Shown here one piece after another: positions 1 to 38,761 of a stretch of DNA of 39,095 nucleotides. Source of the DNA: Hydrogenimonas thermophila (GTDB taxonomy: Bacteria > Campylobacterota > Campylobacteria > Campylobacterales > Hydrogenimonadaceae); the NCBI RefSeq assembly GCF_900115615.1, contig NZ_FOXB01000020.1:1-39095 (forward strand). Reading direction: 5' to 3'. Both the position numbers and the translations under genes were made by a program. A model generated the notes under the pieces. It was not told the origin of the DNA. It saw nothing but the letters and a program-made list of their open reading frames with translations, and did no database searches. Positions within the stretch are counted from its first letter, which is position 1, and each line of letters starts with the position of its first letter.

Positions 1-21
1 AAATTTTATTCAATTATAAGA

Positions 22-576
22 TCAAGCATACTCTTTCTTTAAATATCTGAAATAGTCTAAAAACCCACAAAACATTTTGCTTAACTCTCTTTCATCGTAG
101 TTTTTATAAACCTCTACATATCTTTTAAAATCTTGATATATTCTCTTTCTTAACTCTACAAGTTTTGAATGATTTAAATTTAAACTCTCTATTGTATAGT
201 CAATATTATCATCTAAACTTGCTAAAACTCCATCTTCATAAACAACCTTTTCTAAATCTATCTCAACTGGTGAAATGAGTCTTTTGAAATCATCTTTTTT
301 TAATTTTGCTTTTAAATCTTTATATCTTGCACAATGTTCATCACTGTTACAGGATAAAAAAAGATTTTCATAATCAAATGTTAAATCAGGAAAAAAGTCT
401 CTTTTTTTAAAATGATCAATATGAAACTCTTTTAATTTTCTCTCACAATAGGCACAAAGGGATAACTGCTCTTTATCTAATCTCTCTTTTATATCTTCTT
501 TTATATCAATTTCAATATCTTCCCATCTTTTTGCTTTAGTATTAATTATAAATTTTTCTTTTTTAACTCTTAACAT
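22..576 (-). CDS. HNH endonuclease, PtuB-like (TIGR02646-type)
   Basis: A 184-residue protein with a zinc-finger HNH nuclease core. CAYC at residues 41-44 supplies the first zinc cysteines, FHIDHF at 51-56 is the catalytic His region, and ENLFLSC at 70-76 followed by HC at 81-82 closes the finger and gives the conserved Asn. This layout is that of the HNH family found in retron and Septu (PtuB) defence modules, where a partner ATPase licenses cleavage of nucleic acid. The gene overlaps the end of the upstream ATPase gene by 14 bases, so the two are almost certainly co-translated. ATG start at 576. The C-terminal half (about 100-184) is charged and helical, with no domain I recognise. The role in phage defence is inferred from the pair, not shown; family membership is fairly certain. 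Confidence 0.8.
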   Translation of the reverse strand: MLRVKKEKFIINTKAKRWEDIEIDIKEDIKERLDKEQLSLCAYCERKLKEFHIDHFKKRDFFPDLTFDYENLFLSCNSDEHCARYKDLKAKLKKDDFKRLISPVEIDLEKVVYEDGVLASLDDNIDYTIESLNLNHSKLVELRKRIYQDFKRYVEVYKNYDERELSKMFCGFLDYFRYLKKEYA

Positions 577-1531
577 TAAGTGCCTTTGCTCTAGCTCTTA
601 AAAATCCAAGTTCTACTTCATCATTTAAATTTTTTTCTAAATAATCAAAAAGCTCTTTAAATTCACTATTTATCTCTTTTTTTGCAATTAGTTTTTTTAA
701 TCTTAATATCTTCTCTTCAACCTCTTTATCTCTTATACCACTTCCCATAACTTCAAGCAAAACTAAATTAATATCTTTTCCAAAAGAGTCAATTTTTTTA
801 GCAACTATTTTATCATTCTCTTTTGCAAAGATAAAAAGAGAGTCATTTGGTGTGGAGGCTATTATATGAGGTGAATGGGTTGCCAAAATAATCTGATTAT
901 TATAACTTTTTGCTAAATTTTTATATATTTTTACAATATCTTCTTGCCAACTTGGATGAAGTGAAATCTCTGGCTCATCTATTAAAATAATACTATCTTT
1001 AATATTTGCTACAAAAAAATAGAAAACCTTTTTTAAAAGCTCTTTCTCTCCTGTTGAAAGATTATCTATTGCTACCTCTTCATTAAATCTATTTAAAAAA
1101 TAGATATTTTCATTTTCATCAAGCCCTTTAAAATCTAAACTAAATTCAATACTATCGAAAACATTATTTAAGAATTTATTAAATTCTTTATATGCCTCTT
1201 TGGGAGGAATCTCCTCTTTAAAAATTTTTGATTTTATATATTTTACTATCTCTTGTTTTAAATCAATTATGTTAAACTCTTCTGCTTTTTGATAGAATAT
1301 TTTTTCATTTGCTATATTATTTTTATCAAACTCTATTTTAAATTTTTTATTAAACTCTCTTTTTTTACTATCTCCATATTGATATATTATCTCTAAAAGT
1401 GTAGTTTTACCACTTCCATTAACCCCAGCTAAAACAATTAAATCTAAAATATTTCCATCTTTATCCAAAAAATCGATCTCAAAATCTTTTAAAATTTTAT
1501 AGTTTTTAATCTCTATACTTTTTATTTTCAT
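563..1531 (-). CDS. AAA/ABC-type ATPase, PtuA-like
   Basis: A 322-residue cytosolic ATPase of the SMC/ABC-like AAA15/AAA21 class. It has Walker A GVNGSGKTT at 36-44, ABC signature LSTGEKELLKK at 158-168, Walker B IILIDEPEISLHPSW at 181-195 and the H-loop ATHSPHI at 217-223. Only about 115 residues separate Walker A from the signature, so the coiled-coil/insert region is short. Followed by an overlapping HNH nuclease gene, it matches the two-gene Septu arrangement (PtuA ATPase, PtuB nuclease), but it is smaller than I would expect for a classical PtuA. OLD-family ATPases also share these motifs, but they carry a fused Toprim domain, absent here. The start ATG at 1531 follows GGGA with about 7 bases spacing. 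It probably acts as sensor or gate for the nuclease (inference). Confidence 0.82.
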   Translation of the reverse strand: MKIKSIEIKNYKILKDFEIDFLDKDGNILDLIVLAGVNGSGKTTLLEIIYQYGDSKKREFNKKFKIEFDKNNIANEKIFYQKAEEFNIIDLKQEIVKYIKSKIFKEEIPPKEAYKEFNKFLNNVFDSIEFSLDFKGLDENENIYFLNRFNEEVAIDNLSTGEKELLKKVFYFFVANIKDSIILIDEPEISLHPSWQEDIVKIYKNLAKSYNNQIILATHSPHIIASTPNDSLFIFAKENDKIVAKKIDSFGKDINLVLLEVMGSGIRDKEVEEKILRLKKLIAKKEINSEFKELFDYLEKNLNDEVELGFLRARAKALNVKS

Positions 1532-1601
1532 CCTATTTTCCCGATTTTCTTCTATTGCACTCTTTACACAACATATGATGATTGTTCTCTATTCTCTTTA
1601 C

Positions 1602-1629
1602 TTTTGTCAACTATTTAGAGTTTTGTCAA
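1602..1629 (-). promoter_or_regulatory. Direct repeat TTGACAAAA x2 upstream of the ATPase/HNH pair
   Basis: On the minus strand the 9-mer TTGACAAAA occurs twice (1621-1629 and 1602-1610), start-to-start 19 bases apart, in the gap before the ATPase gene. Each copy contains a perfect -35 hexamer TTGACA, but no good -10 sits 16-18 bases downstream of either. It may be a promoter region or a regulator site, and chance is not excluded. Confidence 0.25.
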
Positions 1630-1630
1630 A

Positions 1631-36720: not shown

Positions 36721-37368
36721 TTAGTCAGGCATATGTAACAGCATATAATTTACTATATTTCTATTCTCTTTTATATATGCAATAGCTGATTTATCTAATA
36801 TTCTATTTGATATTGCAAAAATTCTTTGTATTTTATAATTTTTATATATAGGATTTTTTTCTATAAAACTGTATGTATCACCAACAAATGATTTTATCTT
36901 TTCATGATTAATTTTATATTTACTATTTTCTTTCCAGTTTTTACATTGTATTAAAACAATTTCATCATTTCTTATAGCAATTAGATCTATACTGCTATCT
37001 TTCTTCCCTTTTTCTATTCCATTAAATTTTACAATGTATCCTAAATTTTCAAAATATTTACCTACGTATTTTTCATAGTCTTTACCTTTTTTTACTAAAG
37101 ATTTTTTATATTCCTCTTTACTCATTCTCTTCTTATTATTTTCTGTTTTAACTTTTAAATCAACTATAGTTTCATTATCAATTTTATTATTTTGATATTT
37201 TTTTTCAATTTCTTGTTCTATTTTTTCCTTTTCTTGTTTCAAAATTTCTTCTTTTAGCTTTATATATTCACCAGGGGTTTTAAATTTCTTTTTAAATCTT
37301 TTTTTCTTTTCTTGTTCTGTTTGATTAAGAAACTTTTCAATAGTATTAAATAATTTTGATATACTCAT
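36721..37368 (-). CDS. Mrr-like restriction endonuclease
   Basis: 215 residues. The first 90 are highly charged and probably a coiled coil (KEEILKQEKEKIEQEIEKKY near 39-58). The C-terminal half is a PD-(D/E)xK nuclease of the Mrr/RecB-like type: Glu99, Asp128 in SSIDLIAIR and the QCK motif at 141-143 (QCKNW). Such proteins cut foreign, often modified, DNA. It follows the truncated helicase by 46 bases, with a perfect 16-bp AT palindrome at 37390-37405 between them. The very AT-rich coding sequence suggests acquisition by transfer. Confidence 0.72.
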   Translation of the reverse strand: MSISKLFNTIEKFLNQTEQEKKKRFKKKFKTPGEYIKLKEEILKQEKEKIEQEIEKKYQNNKIDNETIVDLKVKTENNKKRMSKEEYKKSLVKKGKDYEKYVGKYFENLGYIVKFNGIEKGKKDSSIDLIAIRNDEIVLIQCKNWKENSKYKINHEKIKSFVGDTYSFIEKNPIYKNYKIQRIFAISNRILDKSAIAYIKENRNIVNYMLLHMPD

Positions 37369-37414
37369 TTTATATTTATATTTATTTTTATTTTATTAAT
37401 AAAATAACATTATC

Positions 37415-38761
37415 TTAAATAGTAAAAATCCAATAATTTTTCCAAAATTCAATATCAAATGAATCTAATTCTTTATAATATTTAACCAAGTCATTAAAAA
37501 ATATCATCTTTATTTTATTAATATCATTTTTATTATTTATTTTATTCCATAAAACAGTAGAAAATGATATATTATTTAAATCTTTACAATGATACATAAA
37601 TCTTTTTCTTTCAAACTTTTCAAAAGGATTTGCCAAAATATTTTGTTTTATCTTTGAATTATTATTTATAAAGTCTTGATTTTCAAATGGAGATTTATTT
37701 CTATCTATTTTTAAATTATTATCCAACCTATACTGATAAAACTTTTTAAACTCAGTAACAAGTTCATCTAAATTACATTCTCCATTATGATTAATAACTT
37801 TAAACATAGAAAGTATAAAAACCATTTTATAAGATAATGAATAGTTCCCTTCTTCTATAAATTCAAAAAAATCTTCATAAATTGTTTCATCATTATGAAC
37901 TTTTAAATTTTTAAATTTTCTAATTTTATCAACTTGAGATGGATGATAGTAATTAATAAACTTTTTCCCAACAGGTATCTGAACATCTGGTTTAACTTCT
38001 TTTTTCTTTACCCAACTTTTTAATGTACCTGTTGAAATATAAAGTTCTCGTGCAAGCTGTTCATCACTTAAATAGTCTGCATACTTTTCTTCAAATGTAA
38101 ATATATCAATATGCTCTAATTTTCTCTCTTCTTCATAAAGACCTTCTAATATAACCTCTTCATGTGATTTACTATCTGGATTTAAAACATCTGCCCAAGC
38201 TTTATATTCACTAACTCCCAAAAGAGCATGAATTGACCAAGGAGTATTTTTAAATGTTCCAAGTCCACCATAATTATCAACTATATCTATAACATATAAC
38301 GCCTCTTTCCCCTTATATTTTCTTGTTCCTCTGCCTATCTGTTGAGTATATAAAACTTTTGACATAGTTGGTCTAGCCATAACAATTATAGATGTTCTTG
38401 GAGAATCCCATCCCTCATTTAATAAAGAACAAGTAGTTAAAAACTGAATTTTCCCCTCTTGATACTCATCAATATATTTTAAAGATTTTTTGTCATTACC
38501 ACTTACAGCTTTACAAGATATATTATGCTCTTGCATAAGTCTTGCAACCTTTTTAGCATGTGCGACTGAAACACAAAATATAATCCCTGACTTTTTGGGC
38601 ATACCACTATCTATAAAATATTTTTTTAAAACATCAACAATCAGTTGATCTCTTGATGGTACAATTACAGTTCTTTGTAAATCGCTTGAATAATAGTCCT
38701 TACCATTAAACCTAACTTCAGACAAATCAATATTACTTTTTACCCTAAATGCTCTTATTGG
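37415..38761 (-). pseudogene. SF2 helicase, C-terminal part, truncated by an insertion sequence
   Basis: The open frame runs from a TAA at 38762-38764 to the stop at 37415. Reading from near 38758, RAFRVKSNIDLSEVRFNGKDY is helicase-like linker just before the second RecA domain. Motif V (LLNEGWDSP) and motif VI (QQIGRGTRKYKG) are present, but the first RecA domain with Walker A and DEAH box is missing. After the helicase part comes a MerR/excisionase-like helix-turn-helix (LARELYISTGTLKSWVKKKE), then an AT-rich helical tail. No start codon with a ribosome site exists; the first candidate is TTG at 38725. Upstream sequence is an insertion element. It was probably the motor of a restriction or defence system with the nuclease downstream. 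Confidence 0.75.

What the first reader, a model, noticed from the sequence alone, without database searches (positions are those of the whole stretch)
22..1531. Compact Septu-like ATPase + HNH module
The sequence shows an ATPase of only 322 residues with all four NTP-binding motifs, overlapping by 14 bases an HNH nuclease of the PtuB/retron-effector type. Established Septu systems pair PtuA with PtuB; this ATPase has a short insert between Walker A and signature, so it may be a reduced or distinct subtype. No retron reverse transcriptase is visible within the window.
Basis: partly seen in the sequence, partly recalled or inferred. Interest (0 to 1): 0.6.

Follow-up and report, generated by a model that had tools for sequence, protein, structure and literature searches.

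The report
Ordinary stand-alone Septu anti-phage pair
The two genes at the window's left edge are a horizontally acquired Septu (type I) anti-phage defence pair, an ATPase sensor plus an HNH nuclease; the ATPase is unusually short, but it belongs to a known short lineage, so this is a new example of a known system.

Summary
On the minus strand, a 322-aa ABC-type ATPase (563-1531) overlaps by 14 bases a 184-aa HNH protein (22-576). Profiles, solved-structure sequences and a predicted fold all name PtuA and PtuB of Septu.

The window is one whole draft contig, so I reconstructed what lies left of base 1. It is a 1191-bp IS4-family element with 8-bp target duplications, then argD. In 11 of 11 congeners compared across this junction, mopB directly abuts argD. 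The locus is therefore a stand-alone two-gene insertion, later hit by an insertion sequence. No reverse transcriptase is found in the genome, so it is Septu type I, not a retron.

The compactness is real but not unique. Walker A to signature spans 117 residues, against 102-174 in twelve relatives and about 245 in E. coli PtuA. HNH is adjacent in every relative whose contig continues.

Verdict: a new member of a known kind, of low interest. The more interesting by-product lies elsewhere: the same lineage sits between cas8b and cas7 in 4 type I-B CRISPR operons.

The parts
563..1531 (-). ptuA-like ABC-type ATPase gene, 322 aa
   Evidence: PADLOC PDLC00289 PtuA1 E=2.1e-72; profile hit to 8EE4 PtuA E=8e-29; AF2 model pLDDT 84, Foldseek top hit 8EEA PtuA E=1.6e-14
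22..576 (-). ptuB-like HNH endonuclease gene, 184 aa
   Evidence: PADLOC PDLC00326 PtuB1 E=1.2e-36; TIGR02646 84.7 bits, cut-off 52.15; profile hits only to PtuB / retron HNH chains, apart from one weak Cas9 HNH
563..576 (-). 14-base overlap of ptuA end and ptuB start, suggesting translational coupling
   Evidence: ORF coordinates
1403..1426 (-). Walker A GVNGSGKT (PtuA residues 36-43)
   Evidence: alignment; G36, N38, G39, G41, K42, T43 invariant
1043..1060 (-). ABC signature LSTGEK (residues 158-163)
   Evidence: alignment; S159 and G161 invariant
971..988 (-). Walker B ILIDEP (residues 182-187)
   Evidence: alignment; D185 and E186 invariant
875..877 (-). H-loop histidine H219 (THSP)
   Evidence: alignment; invariant
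331..456 (-). HNH core: CAYC (41-44), H55, N71, C76, C82
   Evidence: alignment; C41, Y43, H55, N71, C76 invariant; C82 read from the sequence
1532..1630 (.). 99-bp spacer between the mopB stop and the ptuA start; the likely promoter region (TTGACA-N18-AACAAT at 1610-1581 is no better than shuffles)
   Evidence: absent from 11 congeners in which mopB abuts argD
1..8 (.). One copy of the 8-bp target duplication (TAAAATTT on the minus strand); the IS4-family element lies beyond base 1 and the other copy flanks it before argD on contig C55
1631..3376 (-). mopB, molybdopterin oxidoreductase: host flank of the insertion
   Evidence: Pfam PF00384 E=1e-19; mopB-argD synteny in 11 of 11 congeners compared

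Best explanation
A stand-alone Septu type I defence system (ptuA-ptuB) with a short-insert PtuA. It was acquired by horizontal transfer into the mopB/argD junction of a chromosome and was later flanked by an IS4-family insertion. Proposed mechanism: PtuA dimerises and oligomerises through its ABC ATPase head and holds the PtuB HNH nuclease through its C-terminal helices. A phage-triggered change in PtuA nucleotide state licenses PtuB to cut nucleic acid, stopping phage production, with or without host growth arrest. Shown here: gene content, catalytic residues, fold, pair conservation, insertion site and absence of a reverse transcriptase. Inferred from studied homologues: complex formation, ATP control, nuclease target (phage DNA or a tRNA) and abortive outcome.
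For: PtuA1 and PtuB1 profiles. Profile searches of solved structures rank E. coli Septu PtuA first for the ATPase, and only PtuB and retron HNH chains for the partner apart from one weak Cas9 HNH. The AF2 fold's best match is 8EEA PtuA. The catalytic residues correspond: PtuA K42/D185 and PtuB H55/N71, whose 16-residue spacing equals that of H75/N91, which are essential in Septu EcB88 (PMC13096335). HNH is adjacent in all relatives with a continuing contig, with other genes around the pair varying. No RVT_1 in the genome. Empty site in 11 of 11 congeners compared, GC 24% against about 35% around it, and only an IS and argD to the left.
Against: NCBIfam PtuA and PtuB equivalog models, built on retron Ec78 proteins, are matched below cut-off (83.8 of 500 and 104 of 150 bits). 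The HNH model is poor (pLDDT 58), so its fold match rests mainly on the first 90 residues. Activity against phage is untested. The left junction is reconstructed across a repeat, not read through.
Confidence: 0.93

Rival explanations
1. It is the effector half of a type I-A retron (Septu type II) whose reverse transcriptase and ncRNA lie beyond the contig edge.
For: The HNH also matches the retron I-A HNH model (PDLC02924 E=5e-34) and passes TIGR02646, named 'retron system putative HNH endonuclease'.
Against: No RVT_1 in the whole genome, with working positive controls. Beyond the edge lie only an IS4-family element and argD, joined by matching 8-bp duplications. Upstream is mopB. No RT was seen beside any relative's pair.
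Confidence: 0.02
2. A distinct Septu subtype: the short PtuA lacks the long arm of canonical PtuA, so it assembles or senses differently from the E. coli 6:2 complex.
For: Walker A to signature is 117 residues here and 102-174 in twelve relatives, against 218 in the genome's own canonical Septu PtuA and about 245 in 8EE4. Relatives carry lineage-specific N-terminal additions (TPR, or an unassigned domain) and some sit inside type I-B CRISPR operons.
Against: The same two genes, catalytic residues, order and C-terminal helices as PtuA. PADLOC already includes the lineage as PtuA1 (PDLC00289). A tree of the lineage is mostly unresolved. Segment length varies continuously between members.
Confidence: 0.2
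3. A PARIS-like or DNA-repair/OLD-like ATPase next to an unrelated HNH gene.
For: AriA profiles (E about 1e-28 to 1e-31) and AriA structures also match the ATPase, and the PF13175/PF13304 domains are shared.
Against: PtuA1 scores 40 orders of magnitude better. The partner is HNH, not TOPRIM, in every relative. Foldseek ranks PtuA first, and AriA 46th.
Confidence: 0.02

Closest known systems
Septu type I of E. coli (PtuA/PtuB, PDB 8EE4/8EEA)
   Same: Two-gene operon ptuA-ptuB, ABC-type ATPase head with C-terminal helices, HNH partner with conserved H and N, no RT; top hit by profile and fold
   Different: PtuA is 322 rather than 465 aa; the Walker A-signature segment is 117 rather than about 245 residues; about 15% identity in the structural alignment
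PtuA1 lineage PDLC00289 in Campylobacterota, a Bacteroidetes MAG and Acetoanaerobium (L019, L016, L018, L024, L026, L027)
   Same: Short PtuA (351-382 aa) followed directly by PtuB, inserted among varying housekeeping genes; 31-41% identity
   Different: The window's PtuA is 29-60 aa shorter, mostly just after the Walker A helix
Retron type I-A effectors (Ec78/Eco7, Ec83) = Septu type II
   Same: PtuA + PtuB effector pair
   Different: No reverse transcriptase at the locus or in the genome
Septu EcB88 (PMC13096335)
   Same: ptuAB alone, corresponding Walker and HNH catalytic residues
   Different: Shown to cleave tRNA-Tyr on phage T6 infection; target and trigger unknown here

Membership tests
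Septu type I | PtuA: ABC-type ATPase with Walker A, signature, Walker B and H-loop matching PtuA profiles | tested here: met
Septu type I | PtuB: HNH endonuclease matching PtuB profiles, with catalytic H and N | tested here: met
Septu type I | ptuA and ptuB adjacent and co-oriented, pair conserved among homologues | tested here: met
   11 of 11 relatives with continuing contig
Septu type I | No reverse transcriptase (PtuC) with the pair | tested here: met
   junction reconstruction
Septu type I | Anti-phage activity depending on both ATPase and HNH | not testable with these tools
Septu type I | PtuA-PtuB complex (E. coli: six PtuA, two PtuB) | not testable with these tools
   no complex prediction tool; monomer fold only
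Retron type I-A (Septu type II) | RT gene and msr-msd next to the effector pair | tested here: not met
   (no RVT_1); left neighbour is IS + argD
PARIS | AriA ATPase with AriB TOPRIM partner | tested here: not met
   partner is HNH; AriA ranks below PtuA

The most novel reading that the evidence does not exclude
The pair belongs to a short-arm PtuA lineage that forms a functional subtype of Septu. Its ATPase core keeps only a minimal arm and is a portable sensor-nuclease cassette: some members bear added N-terminal domains and sit as an integral part of type I-B CRISPR operons between cas8b and cas7. The window's pair would be the minimal, stand-alone version of that cassette.
Probability: 0.2. 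Interest if true: 0.6.

Novelty: new member of a known kind. Interest (0 to 1): 0.22.

Why it matters
By itself it adds one Septu locus with a very small PtuA, useful as a minimal construct for asking which parts of PtuA are needed for PtuB control. Its relatives inside type I-B CRISPR operons suggest that Septu effectors can be coupled to adaptive immunity, which can be tested directly.

Tried and rejected
Retron beyond the contig edge: rejected. DNA-repair, OLD or PARIS ATPase: rejected. ATPase without HNH: rejected; the only relative lacking an HNH gene (L024) is cut off by its contig end. Tree to test whether stand-alone and CRISPR-embedded pairs are separate clades: unresolved, 2 of 12 branches well supported. 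Genome-contig scan gave one new relative. Viral contigs held only distant relatives of the ATPase (best 37% over part), 10 of 80 with a PtuB-like gene nearby. Promoter scan was no better than shuffles. The HNH AF2 model was too poor to use beyond its core. Papers joining Septu with type I-B CRISPR operons: none found in the held library.

Full report
What is there. The minus strand of window 22-1531 holds two ORFs in tandem: 563-1531 (322 aa) and 22-576 (184 aa), overlapping by 14 bases. The first is an ABC-type AAA_15/AAA_21 ATPase with Walker A GVNGSGKT, signature LSTGEK, Walker B ILIDEP and H-loop THSP. The key residues are invariant in 15 aligned homologues. The second carries an HNH core, CAYC...H55...N71...C76, with C41, Y43, H55, N71 and C76 invariant in 13 homologues.

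What it is. PADLOC models give PtuA1 at E=2.1e-72 and PtuB1 at E=1.2e-36; the next best non-Septu models are AriA at about 1e-31 for the ATPase and the retron I-A HNH at 5e-34 for the partner. TIGR02646 is passed; the NCBIfam PtuA/PtuB equivalogs, built on the retron Ec78 proteins, are matched below cut-off. A profile of the ATPase and relatives finds E. coli Septu PtuA (8EE4) first among solved chains (E=8e-29). The HNH profile finds PtuB and retron HNH chains, plus one weak Cas9 HNH. An AlphaFold2 model of the ATPase (pLDDT 84) matches 8EEA PtuA best (E=1.6e-14); the hits listed above AriA (rank 46) are all Septu or retron PtuA. The HNH model is poor (pLDDT 58), and its core matches retron PtuB.

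What lies left of base 1. The window is the whole of contig C20 of a 2.44-Mb, 92-contig genome. In 11 congeners, mopB (the gene right of the pair) is followed by argD with only a stop codon between them. In this genome argD lies on contig C55, which begins with a 1191-bp element with 15-bp terminal inverted repeats and an IS4-family transposase (NF033591 E=2.5e-41). The transposase is split into two reading frames at about 467-480. The same element begins contigs C32 and C15. The window's last 8 bases read outward, TAAAATTT, recur just after the element on C55, before argD; C32 and C15 share a different duplication, AAAAAAAA. So the order is mopB - 99 bp - ptuA - ptuB - 13 bp - duplication - IS - duplication - argD. 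Nothing else was inserted. The pair has 24% GC against about 35% around it. The genome has no RVT_1 match, while the control genomes ring as expected. This is a horizontally acquired, stand-alone pair, not a retron.

Is the pair conserved? Relatives were found in 7 other genomes of 397 sampled from the phylum, a Bacteroidetes MAG, and Arcobacter cloacae and Acetoanaerobium records. Of 12 related ATPase genes outside this genome, 11 are followed directly by a PtuB-like gene; the twelfth ends at its contig edge. Flanking genes differ: panB/ruvB, a CNNM gene, glycerol-3-phosphate dehydrogenase, an AccI-type restriction-modification locus and recR. Two-gene autonomy is therefore the common denominator.

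Is it compact? Yes. Walker A lysine to signature serine is 117 residues. The 12 relatives have 102-174, the genome's own canonical Septu PtuA has 218, and E. coli PtuA about 245 (counted from the alignment). The shortening is thus a property of a lineage that PADLOC already calls PtuA1; this member has the smallest total length among those found, but not the shortest segment.

How it most likely works. Homologues define two outcomes. E. [quoted passage not shown] Septu EcB88 cleaves tRNA-Tyr in the variable loop only on infection and needs Walker A, Walker B and HNH residues (PMC13096335). The corresponding residues are all present here. I infer that PtuA's nucleotide state restrains PtuB until infection, after which PtuB cuts nucleic acid and phage production stops. 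The target cannot be told from sequence. ATP control and the 6:2 assembly of E. coli PtuAB are from my own knowledge of the structural work (Li et al. 2024), which the library does not hold.

By-product. Four relatives (L017 Arcobacter cloacae plasmid; L021, L022, L025) sit inside a type I-B operon in the order cas6-cas8b-ptuA-ptuB-cas7-cas5-cas3 (L021 has a fic gene between cas7 and cas5). Cas8b, Cas7b and Cas5b were named by PADLOC for L017; the others were grouped with it by BLAST. Their PtuA has about 140 extra N-terminal residues with no Pfam match above cut-off. Of 17 cas8b operons found in the phylum sample, 3 have ptuA between cas8b and cas7, 13 have cas7 directly next to cas8b, and one has an unrelated ORF there. 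I found no paper describing this. It deserves its own study.

Verdict. New member of a known kind, low interest.

Noticed in passing
L017:2611-11886 (Arcobacter cloacae plasmid pACLO); L021:2363-11001; L022:2013-10746; L025:2-8824: A ptuA-ptuB pair of the same PtuA lineage is embedded in type I-B CRISPR operons between cas8b and cas7. PtuA has about 140 extra N-terminal residues (MTYWHMQLHP..., no Pfam match above cut-off, perhaps EVE/PUA-like by eye). 3 of 17 cas8b operons sampled in the phylum have it, plus the plasmid. No literature found.
   Followed up: partly
L174:320-1498: Another type I-B operon carries an unrelated 392-aa ORF, metallo-beta-lactamase-like by eye (HFHKDH), between cas8b and cas7, so this junction seems to accept accessory genes.
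   Followed up: no
L021:7846-8532: A Fic/DOC-domain gene (PF02661, 5e-16) between cas7 and cas5 of the CRISPR operon that carries ptuAB.
   Followed up: no
L006:1001-3699 (contig C43 of the same genome): A second, canonical-length Septu pair (PtuA1 E=4e-132, PtuB1 E=5e-70) followed by a 177-aa protein with a CTD10 ABC-three-component domain: possibly a Septu/ABC-3C hybrid.
   Followed up: partly
L005:2219-4563 (contig C1 of the same genome): A third ATPase-HNH pair, matching PADLOC candidate PDC-M01 (E=2e-203 and 7e-89).
   Followed up: partly
L020:4951-6336 and L023:7070-8623: PtuA of this lineage with N-terminal TPR repeats and the shortest Walker A-signature segment (102 residues), beside PtuB; the L020 pair lies next to an AccI-type restriction-modification pair.
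   Followed up: partly
L069:1-1191: IS4-family element with 15-bp inverted repeats TCTCA(T/C)TAGTCGTCA, 8-bp target duplications and a transposase split in two frames; identical copies break the assembly at C15, C32 and C55.
   Followed up: yes
window 36721-38725: An Mrr_cat/NERD-type nuclease gene (PF04471, 1e-8) next to a helicase C-terminal domain protein, AT-rich (25-28% GC), at the window's right end: perhaps another defence island cut by the contig end.
   Followed up: partly
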